In this document: piece after piece, positions 22,984 to 30,954 of the stretch
How positions within the stretch are numbered: the first letter of the stretch is position 1
How the letters are laid out: the number at the start of each line of letters is the position of its first letter
Assembly: GCA_003139095.1 (NCBI GenBank)
Contig: PLHW01000063.1
Span: 15,644-79,643 of the forward strand
Source: Acidobacteriaceae bacterium
Lineage (GTDB): Bacteria; Acidobacteriota; Terriglobia; Terriglobales; Acidobacteriaceae
Length of the DNA stretch: 64,000 bases
Direction of reading: 5' to 3'
Position numbers and translations under genes: made by a program
The notes under the pieces: model-generated
What the model saw: only the letters and a program-made list of their open reading frames with translations
Told to the model about the DNA's origin: nothing
Database searches by the model: none

Positions 22984-23013
22984 TTGCCATCGCGCATCCA
23001 GTGCGGTTAGAAT
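22984..23013 (+). promoter_or_regulatory. Promoter of the kynurenine operon
   Basis: TTGCCA (22984-22989), an 18-bp spacer and TAGAAT (23008-23013): five of six consensus bases in each hexamer. Predicted start near 23020, leaving only about 14 nt before the GTG at 23034. Confidence 0.65.
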
Positions 23014-23033
23014 GCGGCGGGGTTCCGCGCTCA

Positions 23034-24488
23034 GTGAAGTCAATTCAGAATTACATCGACGGAAACTTTGTCCGCGGTAAGCAGGACTTCGCCGACGTCA
23101 ACCCGGCCGACGGCAGCGTAATTGCCCACGTCTCGGAGGCGGACCAGTATTTAGTCGATGCTGCAGTGCGGGCGGCCCGCAAGGCTTTGCGCGGCGGGTG
23201 GGGCCGACTCACCGTCCGCGAGCGCGCCGCGCGCTTGCTCAAAGTCGCTGACGCCATCGAGTCGCGCTTTGACTGCTTCGTGGCGGCCGAGGTCGCCGAC
23301 ACCGGCAAGCCCATCACGCTGGCCTCGCGGCTCGATGTCCCCCGCGCGGCCGCCAATTTCCGCGTCTTCGCCGACCTCATCAAGACCACCGGCCTCGAAT
23401 CGTTTCAGTCCGAGACTCCCGACGGCAATACCGCTCTCAACTACGCCGTGCGCAAGCCCCTTGGCGTGGTCGGAATCATCACTCCCTGGAATCTTCCTCT
23501 CCTATTGCTCACCTGGAAGGTCGCGCCCGCGCTCGCCTGCGGCAACACGGTGGTCGTCAAGCCTTCCGAAGAAACCCCCGCGACCGCGACCCTGCTCGCC
23601 GAAACCATGCAGCAGGCTGGCATTCCCAGCGGAGTTTACAACGTTGTGCACGGCTTTGGCCCGAACTCGGCTGGCGAGTTTCTCACCCAGCATCCGGACG
23701 TGAACGCCGTGACCTTCACCGGCGAGTCGCAAACCGGCGGCGCCATCATGAAGTCGGTCGCCGCGTCGCTCAAGCCCGTCTCCTTTGAGCTCGGCGGCAA
23801 AAACGCGGCCATCGTCTTTGCCGATTGCGACTTCGATGATGCGGTCGCCGGGATCAGTGACGCCGTTTTCCTCAACTCCGGCCAGATTTGTCTCTGCATG
23901 GAGCGAGTGTATGTGCAGCGCCCAATCTTCGACCGCTTCGTCGAGGCCCTCGCCCGCAAATCGCAAGACCTGCGCATCGGATCGCCCATGGAGAACACCA
24001 CAAACTTTGGCCCGCTGATCTCGTCCGCACATCGCGAAAAAGTTTTGTCGTACTATCGCCTGGCCCGCGAAGAAGGCGCTACAGCAGTCTTCGGAGGCGG
24101 CATTCCTCAACTCGACGGCCCGCTCGCCCAGGGCTTCTACGTGCAGCCCACCATCTATACTGGACTGGCCGAGTCGGCGCGTTGTGTAAAGGAAGAAATT
24201 TTCGGGCCGGTATGCCATATCGCTCCCTTCGACACTGACGAGGAAGCGATCAACATGGCCAACGACACAAAGTACGGCCTCGCCGCCTCGATCTGGACGA
24301 CGAGTCTGAAACGCGGACACCATGTCGCGCAGCAGATGAACGTGGGGATTACCTGGGTGAATTGCTGGTTTTTGCGAGACCTGCGTACGCCGTTCGGCGG
24401 CGCAGGCCTATCGGGAATCGGACGCGAGGGCGGTATTCACTCCCTCAACTTCTATTCCGAACTTAACAATATCTGTGTTCGTCTTTGA
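23034..24488 (+). CDS. 2-aminomuconate-6-semialdehyde dehydrogenase (ALDH family)
   Basis: 484 residues from GTG 23034, chosen because an earlier frame opening overlaps the promoter -10. ALDH superfamily features: [51 protein letters not shown] with the catalytic Glu, and [12 protein letters not shown] with the catalytic Cys. ALDHs of this subgroup (ALDH8-like; AmnC, NbaE, XylG) oxidise 2-aminomuconate or 2-hydroxymuconate semialdehyde with NAD. Its place next to the aminomuconate deaminase, HaaO and ACMS decarboxylase genes argues for 2-aminomuconate semialdehyde as substrate (EC 1.2.1.32). First gene of the kynurenine operon; cytoplasmic. Confidence 0.88.
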
Positions 24489-24552
24489 CATCGGATTTAA
24501 AAACATCGAATTAAGCAGTAAGTCCGATTCGCAGTTCTGTGGGGAAAGCAAA

Positions 24553-25514
<962 letters not shown>

Positions 25515-25516
25515 CC

Positions 25517-27403
25517 GTGAAAAAGGCCGGTCAGAAAAAAATGCCTGTCATCGATATTCACAACCACTTCTTTCCGCGCACCTGGCCCGACCTCGCGGCC
25601 CGCTTCGGAACTCCCGACTGGCCCTGGATCAAGCACACGGAGCCCGGCAAAGCCGAGATCATGGTGGGCAATCGATTCTTCCGCCACATTACCTCTGCCT
25701 GCTGGGACCCGGAGGTGCGGCTTCACGACATGGATCGGGACGCCGTCGATATGCAAATCATCTCGGCCACGCCCGTGCTTTTTGCCTATGAGCGCCCGGT
25801 CGAGCATGCTCTCGATTGCGCGCAATTGTTCAACGATGCCGCGCTTGAGCTTTGCTCCCGCGGTAACGGGCGGCTGAAGTCGCTCTGCCAGGTTCCTCTG
25901 CAAGATCCCGACGCCGCCTGCAAAGAGTTGAGCCGGTGCATGCGCGCCGGCCATCTCGGCGTGCAGATCGGCAATCACGTGGGAGAAAAAAATCTCGACG
26001 ATCCCGGCATCGTGACCTTCCTGCATCATTGCGCCGACGAAGGCGCCGCCGTGCTCGTGCATCCGTGGGATATGCTCGCGCAATCGCGCATGCCGAAGTA
26101 CATGACGCCCTGGACCGTCGGCATGCCCGCCGAAACTCAGCTGGGCATCGTTGCCATGATATTGGGCGGCGCCTTCGACAAACTGCCGGCAGACCTGCGC
26201 ATCTGCTTCGCGCACGGTGGCGGCAGCTTTGCATTTCTCCTCGGGCGTCTGATGAACGCCTGGAATCATCATCCCGTCGCCCGCGGCATCTGTGCGGTGC
26301 CGCCAAATCAGTACTTGAAGCGGTTCTCTGTAGACTCCGCGGTATTTGACGAGCACGCCCTTCAGTTTCTTGTGGACACAATGGGTGCAGAGCAGGTCAT
26401 GCTGGGCTCCGACTATCCGTTTCCGCTTGGCGAGCACAGCGTCGGCGCACTAATAAAATCGAGCCAATTGGCGACGACGACGAAAAATCGTCTGCTCGGC
26501 GCAAATGCCGCGCAATTTCTCGGGCTGCAAGTTGAGTCTGACGCGACGGATCGCCAAACAACGCCGGAAATCAAAACTCCGCTTGTTCCCCACGGCGAGC
26601 AACTCACCTACAGTTCCTATCTCAAAGTCCCGCAGCTCCTCGCCCTCCAACAGCCGCAGTCCTCGCCGCAGCATCACGACGAACTGCTCTTCATCATTGT
26701 CCACCAGACCTATGAGTTGTGGTTCAAGGAACTTCTGCACGATCTGGATGCTGTGGTCGAAAATTTGCGCGGAGCGGGCGCGAATCCCGATTCGCACGAT
26801 GAAGTCTACGAAGCCGCGCGCCTGCTTCGGCGTTGCACCGAAATAACCCGCGTACTGGTCGAGCAATTCACCATCCTCGAAACCATGCTGCCCACGCACT
26901 TTCTCGCCTTTCGCGGCAAGCTCGAACCCGCCAGCGGCTTCCAGTCCGAACAGTTTCGCGAAATCGAATTCCTCTGCGGACTAAAAGACGAGCAGATGCT
27001 GCGCTATCACCGGCCCACGCCCGAAGCCCATGCGCAACTGGAACGTCGATTGCGCGAACCGTCCCTTCCCGATGTTTTCTTCGAGGCATTGCGCGCCATC
27101 GGCAAGCTGCGCGTAGATGACAACGCGACCGGGTCGGAGCGCTCTGGCGCCCGCGCCCGCGCCGTTCTCTCCTTGTATCGCGATGAGCACCGAAGCCGCG
27201 ACTGGATTGATGTCTGCGAGCGCCTGACCGAATTCGACGAACTCGTTGTGAGCTGGAGGCTTCGTCATATTCAACTCGTAGAGCGCATCATTGGTGCGCG
27301 CATGGGAACTGGCGGCAGTACCGGCTCCTCCTACCTGAAGCACACGCTCGACAAGAAATTTTTCCCGGAACTCTGGGAGGCGCGCACGCTGCTGACCGAA
27401 TAG
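25517..27403 (+). CDS. ACMS decarboxylase / tryptophan 2,3-dioxygenase fusion protein
   Basis: 628 residues in one uninterrupted frame. Residues about 9-336 are an amidohydrolase-2-type 2-amino-3-carboxymuconate-semialdehyde decarboxylase: HNH metal motif (H15, H17), VHPWDM, FAHGGGSFAFLLGR and GSDYPFPLGE supply the zinc ligands. Residues about 353-628 are a tryptophan 2,3-dioxygenase: LTYSSYLKVPQLLALQQP at its N-terminus, HQTYELWFKELLHDLD with H396, ASGFQSEQFREIEF, the heme-ligand His in RLRHIQLVERIIG (H584) and GTGGSTGSSYL. The linker (about 337-352) holds no stop and no start codon. Both halves are full length. Start GTG 25517 or ATG 25541. It joins the first step of the pathway to the step that prevents quinolinate formation. 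Confidence 0.93.
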   Translation: MKKAGQKKMPVIDIHNHFFPRTWPDLAARFGTPDWPWIKHTEPGKAEIMVGNRFFRHITSACWDPEVRLHDMDRDAVDMQIISATPVLFAYERPVEHALDCAQLFNDAALELCSRGNGRLKSLCQVPLQDPDAACKELSRCMRAGHLGVQIGNHVGEKNLDDPGIVTFLHHCADEGAAVLVHPWDMLAQSRMPKYMTPWTVGMPAETQLGIVAMILGGAFDKLPADLRICFAHGGGSFAFLLGRLMNAWNHHPVARGICAVPPNQYLKRFSVDSAVFDEHALQFLVDTMGAEQVMLGSDYPFPLGEHSVGALIKSSQLATTTKNRLLGANAAQFLGLQVESDATDRQTTPEIKTPLVPHGEQLTYSSYLKVPQLLALQQPQSSPQHHDELLFIIVHQTYELWFKELLHDLDAVVENLRGAGANPDSHDEVYEAARLLRRCTEITRVLVEQFTILETMLPTHFLAFRGKLEPASGFQSEQFREIEFLCGLKDEQMLRYHRPTPEAHAQLERRLREPSLPDVFFEALRAIGKLRVDDNATGSERSGARARAVLSLYRDEHRSRDWIDVCERLTEFDELVVSWRLRHIQLVERIIGARMGTGGSTGSSYLKHTLDKKFFPELWEARTLLTE

Positions 27404-27435: not shown

Positions 27436-28800
27436 ATGACCTCGACTCGCCAAACCATCACGCTGATCGGCGCCGGGCTGAATGGGCCGCTCCTCGCTCT
27501 CGGCCTGGTGCAGCGCGGCTTTCAGGTCGAGATCTACGAGCGCCGTCCCGATATGCGCCGCGTGCGCATGAGCGCCGGCCGCTCCATCAACCTCGCCCTT
27601 TCCACTCGCGGCATTCACGCCCTCAAAAAAGTTGGGCTGTGGGATGCGATGCAGAAAATCATCATCCCTATGAAGGGTCGCATGATGCACTCGGTGACCT
27701 CCGAGCTGACCTTTCAGCCCTACGGAAAAAACGAATCCGAAGTCATCAATTCCATTTCGCGCGCCGAGTTGAACATTGCCCTAATGAATGCCGCGCAGTC
27801 GCAGGGCGTCGCAATCCACTTCCAGCAACGATGCGCGGGAATCGATTTCAAAACCGGGACGCTGCAATTGCGCGACGAAACATCCTGCGACGAACGCCCC
27901 GTTGACTGCGCCGTCGTCATTGGTTGCGACGGCTCAGCCTCGGCAATTCGCAATGAGATGCTCAAGCTCAACCGCTTCAATTTTTCTCAGCAATTCCTTG
28001 ACTACGGATACAAGGAACTCGCCATTCCGCCGGGGCCTGCCGGGAAGCACGCGCTCGAGACGAATGCCCTTCACATCTGGCCTCGCGGAAACTACATGCT
28101 CATCGCGCTCCCCAATATGGACGCCACGTTTGCTTGCATCCTATTTCTACCCTTCGGGGGGCCGGACAGCTTTGAGCGCCTGACCACGCCCTCTGCGCTG
28201 GATGAGTTTTTCCGATCGCGCTTTCCCGACGCGGTTCCGCTAATGCCAAACTTGGCCAATGACTTCTTTGCCAATCCAACCGGCGCGATGGTGACCATTA
28301 AATGCTCGCCCTGGCACTTCGGCGGCCAGGCGCTCCTTTTGGGCGACGCCGCTCACGCCATCGTTCCGTTCTTCGGTCAGGGAATCAACTGCGGTTTCGA
28401 GGACTGCACCACCTTGCTTGAGTTGCTGGACCAGCACGGCGCGGATTGGAAAACGGTTTTTCGCGAGTTTGAAGTCGCGAGAAAAGTAAACACCGACGCC
28501 ATCGCCGATCTGGCCGTCGAAAACTTTGTAGAAATGCGGGATCGCGTCGCCGATCCGCGTTTTCTCTTCCGCAAGAAAGTTGAGCTTGCACTCGAGGCCA
28601 AGTACCCACAGCTTTTTGTTCCCAAGTATTCCATGGTCACCTTTCACCGCATCCCGTATTCGACCGCCCTGAACCGCGGCCGCGTGCAAGACGAGATGTT
28701 GGCGGCGCTTTGCGATGGCATCGAGCGAATCGAAGAACTCGACTGGGAAAGAGCTGACCAACTCGTGCGCACCAGTCTCACTCCTCTGGAGCATTCGTGA
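27436..28800 (+). CDS. kmo: Kynurenine 3-monooxygenase
   Basis: 454-residue FAD-dependent aromatic hydroxylase; converts L-kynurenine to 3-hydroxykynurenine with NADPH and O2. Seen: FAD motif LIGAGLNGPLLALGLVQRGF, the KMO-type segment RRVRMSAGRSINLALSTRG, DG motif VIGCDGSASAIR, and GDAAHAIVPFFGQGINCGFEDC. Length matches bacterial KMO (about 450-460); the hydrophobic C-terminal anchor of eukaryotic KMO is lacking, so it is probably soluble or peripheral. Start ATG 27436, 32 bp after the fusion gene. Its last bases overlap the kynU start (GTGA). Confidence 0.95.
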   Translation: MTSTRQTITLIGAGLNGPLLALGLVQRGFQVEIYERRPDMRRVRMSAGRSINLALSTRGIHALKKVGLWDAMQKIIIPMKGRMMHSVTSELTFQPYGKNESEVINSISRAELNIALMNAAQSQGVAIHFQQRCAGIDFKTGTLQLRDETSCDERPVDCAVVIGCDGSASAIRNEMLKLNRFNFSQQFLDYGYKELAIPPGPAGKHALETNALHIWPRGNYMLIALPNMDATFACILFLPFGGPDSFERLTTPSALDEFFRSRFPDAVPLMPNLANDFFANPTGAMVTIKCSPWHFGGQALLLGDAAHAIVPFFGQGINCGFEDCTTLLELLDQHGADWKTVFREFEVARKVNTDAIADLAVENFVEMRDRVADPRFLFRKKVELALEAKYPQLFVPKYSMVTFHRIPYSTALNRGRVQDEMLAALCDGIERIEELDWERADQLVRTSLTPLEHS

Positions 28801-30071
28801 GCACCACTTCTTTTCAAACCTCCGAGGATTTCGCCGCCGCGATGGACGCTCGCGATCCGCTCGCCCATTTTCAAGAGCGCTTTTACATTCCCACCGCAGC
28901 GAACGGCAGCGAGTGTATCTATCTCTGCGGCCATTCCCTCGGACTGCAACCCAAAACAGCTCGCTCCTATCTCGAGCAGGAACTACGGGACTGGGCGAAA
29001 CTCGGCGTCGAAGGCCACTTTCACGCGAAAAATCCCTGGATGCCCTACCACCGTCTGCTAACCCAGCAGACCGCCGACCTCGTGGGCGCGCAACCCAACG
29101 AAGTCGTTGTGATGAATTCACTCACGGTTAATCTCCATCTGATGATGGCGTCCTTTTACCGCCCCACTTCGCAGCGGCACAAGATTTTGATCGAGCGTGG
29201 TGCCTTCCCCTCGGATCAATACGCGGTACACTCGCAGATCCGGTTTCACGGCTTCGATCCCCAATCATCGCTCATCGAGCTATCGCCTCGCGACGGCGAA
29301 GCCTGCCTGCGTGAAGAAGATATCGAATCCTCGATCGAACTCCACGGCGATGCAATCGCGCTCATTCTGCTGGGCGGCGTGAACTATGCCACCGGCCAGG
29401 CTTTCGACATGGCAGAGATCACGAAGGCCGGCCATCGCCAGGGCTGCGTGGTCGCGTTCGATCTCGCGCACGCCGCCGGCAACATTCCGCTCCGCCTTCA
29501 CGATTGGGGACCAGATTTCGCGGTCTGGTGCAGCTACAAGTATTTGAACGGCGGCCCAGGCTGCGTCGCTGGCTGCTTCGTGCATGAGCGTCACGCGCAA
29601 GCCAACGCTATGCCGCGCTTCGCCGGTTGGTGGGGCCACGATGAGAAGACTCGCTTCAAGATGGGTCCGGACTTTCATCCAATGCCGGGCGCGGAGGGCT
29701 GGCAGCTCAGTAATCCTCCGATCCTGGCGCTCGCGCCCCTGCGCGCTTCGATGGAAATTTTCTCCGAGGCCACGATGGAGCGCCTGCGCGCCAAGAGCAA
29801 ACTCCTCACCGCCTACCTGGAGTTCCTTCTTCGCGAAAACGCTTCGCCAAAATTCGCCATCGTCACGCCGTCGGACCCGGAACGCCGCGGCGCGCAACTA
29901 TCGATCAAATTGCCCCATCACGGTCGCGCCCTGTGCGACCGATTAACCGCCGAAGGAACTATCGGCGACTGGCGCGAACCCGACACCTTCCGCGTTGCCG
30001 CCGTCCCGCTTTACAACTCTTACCTCGACGTTCACCGCTTCGCTCAGCACTTTCTAGCCGCGCTTCAATAA
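28797..30071 (+). CDS. kynU: Kynureninase
   Basis: 424-residue PLP enzyme; cleaves 3-hydroxykynurenine (or kynurenine) to 3-hydroxyanthranilate and alanine. Seen: YLCGHSLGLQPK near the N-terminus, FHAKNPWMPYHR, VVMNSLTVNLHLMM, GDAIALILLGGVNYATGQ, VAFDLAHAAGNIPL and WCSYKYLNGGPG in which K248 should hold PLP. Start GTG 28797 overlaps the kmo stop by four bases, so the two are coupled. Last gene of the operon; a convergent hydrolase gene ends 14 bp downstream with no hairpin between them. Confidence 0.95.
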   Translation: MSTTSFQTSEDFAAAMDARDPLAHFQERFYIPTAANGSECIYLCGHSLGLQPKTARSYLEQELRDWAKLGVEGHFHAKNPWMPYHRLLTQQTADLVGAQPNEVVVMNSLTVNLHLMMASFYRPTSQRHKILIERGAFPSDQYAVHSQIRFHGFDPQSSLIELSPRDGEACLREEDIESSIELHGDAIALILLGGVNYATGQAFDMAEITKAGHRQGCVVAFDLAHAAGNIPLRLHDWGPDFAVWCSYKYLNGGPGCVAGCFVHERHAQANAMPRFAGWWGHDEKTRFKMGPDFHPMPGAEGWQLSNPPILALAPLRASMEIFSEATMERLRAKSKLLTAYLEFLLRENASPKFAIVTPSDPERRGAQLSIKLPHHGRALCDRLTAEGTIGDWREPDTFRVAAVPLYNSYLDVHRFAQHFLAALQ

Positions 30072-30084
30072 CAAATCGCTTCAT

Positions 30085-30873
30085 TCAAACATCCGCAAAG
30101 ATTCGCCAGACCTCGTCCGCCACAGCATTCCATGCGGCCGTTCGCGGATCGATCAGCGAAAAATGATCGGCCGCGTCAATCTCGACCAGCCGCACATCTT
30201 CTTTCTCCACGCCGGTTCGCCTCTGCTTTGCGGCAACGTACTCGCGGCTGACGTCGACAGGCACCACATCATCCGCGCTTCCATGAATTAGAACCTGCCG
30301 AGCGCCAATAATTGAAAGCTGCATCGGATCGGCCTCGCCGTAGCGCGCTGCAACCGCTCCCGGCGCACCATCCAAAAACTCCACGACCGCGTCGTCGCTC
30401 AGGTGAAGTTCATAGGCCCGCCGCAGGTCCAACACTCCCGCAAGCGCAATCACCCGCCGCACTCCGCTCTCGCAAGCCGCCAGGCACAGCGCAAGCTGCC
30501 CTCCCGCCGAGTGACCAACCACGAGAACTTTCGTCGCATCGAAGTTGTGCCGCTCCTCGTTTCGCCGAAGAAATTCATACGCCCTGCGAATATCTTCCAG
30601 CGTCCCCGGCCAGCCCCCGCCTTCATTCCCCACGCGCCGGTATTCTACATTCGCCGTGGCAAGTCCCCTTGCAGTGAGAGCCGCGCAAAAGTGCCCAGCA
30701 TGCGCGAGATCATATCGCGCACGCCAAAACCCACCATGAATGTTCATCACCAGCGGCGGCGCACTCACGCCCGGCTGCGGCAATCGCAAATCAATAAAGT
30801 GACTTTCGTCCCCTCCATACCGGACCCGCGCATCGGCGGGCGGCGGCGGCGGAGTGAGAATATCGGACGGCAT
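30085..30873 (-). CDS. Alpha/beta hydrolase, candidate kynurenine formamidase
   Basis: 262 residues from ATG 30873 (GAGGA five bases upstream). Alpha/beta hydrolase fold of the BD-FAE/kynurenine-formamidase group: oxyanion motif NIHGGFW (about 44-50), nucleophile elbow VGHSAGGQLAL, Asp in HGSADDVVPV and His in AADHFSLID. The HGG-W motif is shared with eukaryotic-type arylformamidases (BNA7/AFMID). Position beside kynU and absence of another formamidase (KynB) suggest it hydrolyses N-formylkynurenine to kynurenine, completing the pathway. It could instead be a carboxylesterase. It is transcribed toward the operon and so is regulated separately. Confidence 0.7.
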   Translation of the reverse strand: MPSDILTPPPPPADARVRYGGDESHFIDLRLPQPGVSAPPLVMNIHGGFWRARYDLAHAGHFCAALTARGLATANVEYRRVGNEGGGWPGTLEDIRRAYEFLRRNEERHNFDATKVLVVGHSAGGQLALCLAACESGVRRVIALAGVLDLRRAYELHLSDDAVVEFLDGAPGAVAARYGEADPMQLSIIGARQVLIHGSADDVVPVDVSREYVAAKQRRTGVEKEDVRLVEIDAADHFSLIDPRTAAWNAVADEVWRIFADV

Positions 30874-30954
30874 GCTGTTCCTCATTCTAGATTGCTCGCC
30901 TGTTCGCGCGTTCGGAGCTTCCGCTCCAGCGCCCAACGACCGGCGTCAACGCAG

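What the first reader, a model, noticed from the sequence alone, without database searches (positions are those of the whole stretch)
25517..27403. ACMS decarboxylase fused to tryptophan 2,3-dioxygenase in one polypeptide
A single 628-codon frame encodes a complete zinc amidohydrolase-type ACMS decarboxylase (metal ligands visible) followed by a complete heme-type tryptophan 2,3-dioxygenase (H396 and proximal-ligand candidate H584, GTGGSTG motif). The 16-residue linker has no stop or start. The two domains catalyse non-adjacent steps: the pathway entry and the removal of ACMS before it becomes quinolinate. This would force equal supply of entry enzyme and detoxifying enzyme. I know of these enzymes as separate proteins; the fusion looks undescribed to me, which I cannot verify without a search.
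Basis: partly seen in the sequence, partly recalled or inferred. Interest (0 to 1): 0.88.

Follow-up and report, generated by a model that had tools for sequence, protein, structure and literature searches.

The report
Fused first and branch-point tryptophan enzymes
Some soil bacteria make one protein that joins the enzyme that starts tryptophan breakdown to the enzyme that decides whether a later product becomes an NAD precursor, which offers a natural way to study how cells control that split.

Summary
Window 25541-27403 (+) encodes one 620-residue protein: a complete ACMS decarboxylase (ACMSD) domain, a variable linker of about 24 residues, and a complete tryptophan 2,3-dioxygenase (TDO) domain. 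It is not an artefact: the same unbroken frame occurs in 45 distinct genomes; every named one is Acidobacteriota. Catalytic residues are kept and both domains are under strong purifying selection, while the linker drifts. It lies in a kynurenine-pathway operon: ALDH, RidA, HAO, [ACMSD-TDO], KMO, KYNU, plus a candidate formamidase. In six complete clusters of other Acidobacteriota the two genes are separate, with KYNU and KMO between them. Most likely it couples pathway entry to removal of the unstable branch-point product ACMS. One-to-one subunits follow from the gene. That TDO assembly holds ACMSD in its active oligomer is inference. NadA was not found in 11 of 13 carriers, so the pathway may feed NAD synthesis, but salvage genes are present and the link is not shown. 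Eight searches of one open-access library listed no paper on the fusion. It is a new variant of known enzymes.

The parts
25541..27403 (+).
25541..26530 (+). ACMSD domain, residues 1-330; equivalents of Pseudomonas ACMSD H9, H11, R51, H177, H228, R239, D294 present; the R247 equivalent is His
26531..26602 (+). linker, residues 331-354, no in-frame ATG/GTG/TTG, low model confidence
26603..27400 (+). TDO domain, residues 355-620; equivalents of Xanthomonas TDO Y24, Y27, L28, F51, H55, R117, S124, H240, T254 present; Y113 and Y131 equivalents are Phe
23001..24488 (+). semialdehyde dehydrogenase (TIGR03216 over cut-off), probable 2-aminomuconate-6-semialdehyde dehydrogenase
24475..24975 (+). RidA-family protein, probable 2-aminomuconate deaminase (true start probably later)
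24984..25514 (+). 3-hydroxyanthranilate 3,4-dioxygenase (HAO), two equivalog models over cut-off
27436..28800 (+). FAD monooxygenase, probable kynurenine 3-monooxygenase (by family and position; no KMO-specific model was hit)
28797..30071 (+). kynureninase (TIGR01814 over cut-off)
30085..30936 (-). BD-FAE alpha/beta hydrolase with HGGFW (HGGxW motif of formamidases recalled), candidate kynurenine formamidase; homologues convergent to the cluster in L061 (45%), L122 (44%) and L066 (43%)

Best explanation
A bifunctional enzyme made from a kynurenine-pathway operon. Its C-terminal half opens the pathway (tryptophan to N-formylkynurenine). Its N-terminal half removes ACMS, the unstable product formed by HAO several steps later, before it cyclises to quinolinate. 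Shown: one frame, both domains complete with catalytic residues, both under purifying selection, conserved inside the operon. Inferred: because every TDO subunit carries one ACMSD subunit, the capacity to remove ACMS rises in step with pathway entry, so the share of ACMS that leaks to quinolinate stays roughly constant. Further inferred: TDO assembly (a tetramer in known TDOs, recalled) keeps ACMSD in its active dimer or tetramer.
For: Single intact frame in 45 distinct genomes. Both domains match solved enzymes by sequence over nearly their full length; the ACMSD half also by fold. Seven ACMSD and nine TDO positions agree with the solved enzymes; over the 42 rows of A2 all 16 are invariant except the H177 equivalent, changed in L066. 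In ten gene pairs dN/dS is 0.04-0.08 for ACMSD and 0.02-0.06 for TDO; the linker is 0.29-3.4 in the nine pairs where it could be computed. Operon order is conserved. No other match to this protein in the window's genome. HAO, which makes ACMS, is over its cut-off in 12 of 12 intact carriers and in 0 of 28 non-carriers tested; one of these, G055, has a contig-edge fragment of 105 bits, and the cut carrier G271 has none. A review says the ACMSD monomer is inactive, the dimer active and the tetramer more active, and that control of the ACMS split is unexplained (PMC10143591; passages, section 7 whole).
Against: No activity, oligomer or proteomic data. ACMSD and TDO act on non-adjacent steps, so no direct channelling between the two is expected. 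Other Acidobacteriota have the same enzymes as separate genes, so the fusion is not necessary. The linker is unconserved in sequence and length (8-52 residues in 42 rows), which argues against tight interdomain contact. The AlphaFold model has pTM 0.54 and no sure domain arrangement. TDO falls short of the TIGR03036 equivalog cut-off (239.5 of 390.7 bits).
Confidence: 0.6

Rival explanations
1. A neutral operon-junction fusion: neighbouring ACMSD and TDO genes lost the stop between them; both work as before and the fusion is kept by inheritance only.
For: The linker drifts. Linkers in the window's clade often end in a stretch that by eye resembles the short N-terminal leader of the nearest free TDO (window TPLVPHGEQLTY, free SPIKPESDQLTY). 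In the careful TDO tree the fusions form one clade, 84/83, not strongly supported, compatible with one event passed down.
Against: The fused frame has survived in 45 genomes down to about 62-67% domain identity; only 2 of the 46 loci show a broken frame (L067, L069).
Confidence: 0.25
2. Two separate proteins are made, by internal initiation or by cleavage in the exposed linker.
For: The linker has low model confidence. 25 of 42 rows hold some in-frame ATG/GTG/TTG near the junction.
Against: The window has none there, the positions are scattered, and only 4 of the 42 rows have a Shine-Dalgarno-like stretch upstream of one. Cleavage was not testable.
Confidence: 0.08
3. The fusion operon serves mainly NAD synthesis where the aspartate route is lost, with the ACMSD half limiting how much ACMS becomes quinolinate.
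For: In the window's genome NadA was not found, NadC is present and no NadB match reaches that model's cut-off (best 170.8 of 452.75 bits). NadA is found in 2 of 13 carriers (12 intact plus cut G271) but 340 of 386 non-carriers of the class sample (Fisher p 1.3e-8, relatedness ignored). In genus g6 the four carriers lack NadA and the one non-carrier, G298, has it.
Against: G227 and G331 have both fusion and NadA. G236 (same genus, no fusion, no HAO) also lacks NadA. A NAPRTase salvage gene is found in 11 of 13 carriers, the window's genome included, so NAD need not come from tryptophan. NadC was not found in 3 of 12 carriers tested (G134, G294, G289). G245 keeps a NadB match over the cut-off. 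NadA is also missing in 10 of 27 genomes chosen for an unfused ACMSD match, so any link is not special to the fusion. The operon carries the catabolic branch.
Confidence: 0.25

Closest known systems
Pseudomonas fluorescens ACMSD (2hbv and other entries)
   Same: Same fold; the seven catalytic and metal positions checked are present; about 50% identity
   Different: Separate protein there; here its C-terminus runs on into TDO
Xanthomonas campestris TDO (2nw7)
   Same: Same family; distal and heme-ligand His, substrate Arg, GTGGS motif (roles recalled)
   Different: Separate protein; Y113 and Y131 equivalents are Phe here; TIGR03036 cut-off not reached
Unfused kynurenine clusters of other Acidobacteriota (L108-L112, L119)
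   Same: Same enzymes in one cluster
   Different: Order HAO-ACMSD-KYNU-KMO-TDO in these six of ten unfused-ACMSD stretches fetched; the other four (L113, L114, L117, L118) lack one or more genes in the stretch
Free TDO of family f83 (G643, G608, G657)
   Same: 73-77% identical to the window's TDO domain
   Different: No ACMSD match at E<=1e-45 and no HAO; a divergent kynureninase-like gene is next to TDO in L106 and L107 and 6 kb away in L105

Membership tests
ACMSD | Amidohydro_2 domain over curated cut-off | tested here: met
   116.7 bits against cut-off 26.4; no ACMSD-specific NCBIfam model was hit
ACMSD | Zn ligands H9, H11, H177, D294, catalytic H228, and R51/R239 from two subunits | tested here: met
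   All seven present in the window; over 42 rows six are invariant and the H177 equivalent is His in 41. Arg roles from PDB title 4ifk; other roles recalled
ACMSD | Decarboxylates ACMS | not testable with these tools
   needs assay; HAO, the producer of ACMS, is next to it
TDO (PF03301) | Trp_dioxygenase over curated cut-off | tested here: met
   193.2 bits against 34.9
TDO equivalog TIGR03036 | NCBIfam equivalog cut-off 390.7 bits | tested here: not met
   239.5 bits; the one free f83 relative scanned also fails at 257.4, so the model may be narrow
TDO | Distal His55, heme ligand His240, Arg117, Thr254 (Xanthomonas numbering, roles recalled) | tested here: met
   invariant in 42 of 42 rows
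TDO | Heme tetramer oxidising L-tryptophan | not testable with these tools
   needs purified protein

The most novel reading that the evidence does not exclude
The fusion is a built-in valve. The TDO tetramer is the scaffold and the sensor: tryptophan or heme binding to TDO sets the oligomeric state, and so the activity, of the attached ACMSD. This holds the quinolinate leak constant whatever the tryptophan flux. In 8 of 45 carriers a Gly-Cys-Pro motif in the linker (resembling a heme-regulatory CP motif, recalled) could add heme sensing; the window's own linker lacks it.
Probability: 0.12. Interest if true: 0.85.

Novelty: new variant of a known kind. Interest (0 to 1): 0.58.

Why it matters
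How cells keep quinolinate steady while tryptophan flux varies, although ACMS cyclises on its own, is called perplexing in a 2023 review about humans (PMC10143591, section 7). A lineage that has covalently tied the entry enzyme to ACMSD is a natural experiment on that question: compare the fused enzyme with the same two domains separated.

Tried and rejected
Frame artefact: in several unfused loci the TDO reading frame is also very long (up to 1087 aa from a start codon), but there it overlaps the KMO and KYNU genes in another frame and holds no ACMSD. In the window both domains align in one frame, so the artefact reading is rejected.

Fusions elsewhere: in 0 of 400 plasmid records with a match does one place cover 80% of the query. 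The genome scan used two peptide patterns, both from the ACMSD N-terminus, so diverged fusions in other phyla are not excluded. The class and phylum samples are draws (399 and 396 genomes); the phylum search was cut at E 1e-45 and its list of places was capped.

Number of fusion events: in a quick TDO tree of 78 rows the f83 free TDOs fall inside the fusions, with L064 (96 SH-aLRT). In a careful tree of 34 rows the fusions are one clade, 84/83, not starred. The ACMSD tree does not show one clade: the alphaproteobacterial singles L072 and L073 and a long-branched Pseudomonas sequence lie among the fusions, unresolved. One origin, two origins or a fission in f83 all remain open. Rows dropped before the trees: second copies of the same genomes, short or cut hits, L067 and L068, and many of the similar fusions.

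Structure: AlphaFold model mean pLDDT 74.9, pTM 0.54. The top 50 Foldseek hits that were printed are ACMSD and related decarboxylases, so the TDO half rests on sequence. One search's TDO column used a wrong-frame query of mine and is replaced. Steps after aminomuconate: catechol_dmpH (TIGR03218) was not found in the genome, but the control rang in only 1 of 14 and in none over the cut-off, so this says little. A cyclase-type hydrolase (PF04199, the other formamidase type, recalled) lies elsewhere in the genome, so the formamidase assignment is open.

Full report
What is there. The frame at 25517-27403 is open throughout. All 53 fusion loci have a Met at the place of the ATG at 25541, one residue later in L066, so I take a 620-residue protein. 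Pfam finds Amidohydro_2 and Trp_dioxygenase in it, both over the curated cut-offs. Against solved structures the first half matches Pseudomonas ACMSD (E about 1e-115) and the second half Xanthomonas TDO (E 3e-53).

It is not an artefact. A search of 399 genomes of the class, the window's own included, found 12 with the fusion in one intact frame, plus one contig that begins inside the TDO half (G271). A scan of the named genome collection gave 46 loci: 41 have the intact single-frame fusion, 2 have both domains with a broken frame (L067, L069), 1 contig ends just after ACMSD (L068), and 2 alphaproteobacterial loci have ACMSD without a TDO match (L072, L073). The 41 with record titles are all labelled as Acidobacteriota or its groups (Acidobacteriaceae, Candidatus Sulfotelmatobacter, Terriglobia, and L064 and L066 labelled Bryobacterales); the other four, the window included, are from one family of the unnamed set, which also holds genomes of that collection. 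One unnamed carrier, G227, is a single contig of 5,650,368 bp; I recall that as the size of Koribacter versatilis Ellin345, but no call names it.

Both halves look functional. Over 42 aligned fusions seven ACMSD positions (metal ligands, catalytic His, substrate Arg) are invariant, except the H177 equivalent in L066, and nine TDO positions, among them the equivalents of H55, R117, H240 and T254, are invariant; Y113 and Y131 equivalents are Phe in all rows (roles recalled, except the two Arg named in PDB title 4ifk). Mean pairwise identity is 0.78 for ACMSD, 0.83 for TDO and 0.19 for the linker. In ten chosen pairs dN/dS is 0.04-0.08 and 0.02-0.06 for the two domains; for the linker it is 0.29-3.4 in the nine pairs where it could be computed, over only 22-50 codons. 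The linker is 8-52 residues long.

Surroundings. The operon reads ALDH, RidA, HAO, [ACMSD-TDO], KMO, KYNU, with a convergent BD-FAE hydrolase that may be the formamidase. KMO is assigned by FAD-monooxygenase family and position; no KMO model was hit. The order recurs in the fusion loci of the named collection wherever the contig reaches, except L066, which has KMO after the fusion but no HAO, RidA, ALDH or close KYNU beside it. Of ten fetched stretches from more distant Acidobacteriota with an unfused ACMSD, six hold HAO-ACMSD-KYNU-KMO-TDO as separate genes and four lack one or more of them in the stretch. The closest free TDOs (73-77% identical) sit in three genomes of family f83 without an ACMSD match at E 1e-45 and without HAO. 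Linkers in the window's clade often end in a stretch that by eye resembles the short leader of those free TDOs. The trees do not settle whether the fusion or the free state came first there.

HAO follows the fusion: it is over its cut-off in 12 of 12 intact carriers and 0 of 28 non-carriers tested; non-carrier G055 has a contig-edge fragment below the cut-off, and cut carrier G271 has no match.

NAD. In the window's genome (98% complete) NadC is present, NadA was not found, and no NadB match reaches the cut-off. In the class sample NadA is in 2 of 13 carriers and 340 of 386 non-carriers. Against a simple link: G227 and G331 keep NadA; G236 lacks NadA without fusion or HAO; a NAPRTase salvage gene occurs in 11 of 13 carriers, this one included, with weak scores in the f7 carriers; and of 27 phylum genomes that I chose for an ACMSD match without fusion (other such genomes, mostly of family f34, were left out), 10 also lack NadA. 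The NAD role is therefore possible, not shown.

How it may work. Shown: one polypeptide with two complete domains. Inferred: fixed 1:1 capacity, and oligomer support of ACMSD by TDO. A review says ACMSD is inactive as a monomer, active as a dimer and more active as a tetramer, and that control of ACMS partition is unexplained; it proposes transient HAO-ACMSD-AMSDH complexes, not a TDO partner (PMC10143591: passages, section 7 read whole).

Novelty. Eight searches of one open-access library (one search listed no paper) listed no title or abstract about a TDO-ACMSD fusion; most listed papers were not opened. Word searches inside four papers (PMC4217691, PMC4646340, PMC13151070, PMC10143591) showed no passage on one; PMC4217691 notes one Acidobacteria genome with at least four of five kynurenine-pathway steps. 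Subscription papers and protein-architecture databases were not searchable.

Noticed in passing
L007, L009, L061, L062, L071, L074, L075, L076, linker region: 8 of 45 distinct fusions carry Gly-Cys-Pro in the linker, resembling a heme-regulatory CP motif (recalled); absent in the window's linker.
   Followed up: partly
G236 (same genus as the window's genome): Has NadC but no NadA and no HAO match, and no NadB over cut-off; a NAPRTase gene is present, so probably salvage.
   Followed up: partly
L105-L107 (family f83): Free TDO close to the fused one; a divergent kynureninase-like gene is next to it in L106 and L107 and 6 kb away in L105 (the two scanned, in L105 and L107, score 147-148 bits, below the 246.4 cut-off).
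   Followed up: partly
L072, L073: Alphaproteobacterial unfused ACMSD, 66% identical to the window's domain and next to HAO, may point to gene transfer between the phyla.
   Followed up: no
L066:6422-8317: Most diverged fusion; the H177 equivalent of ACMSD is Asn and no HAO, RidA or ALDH stands next to it; its ACMSD half may be changing function.
   Followed up: no
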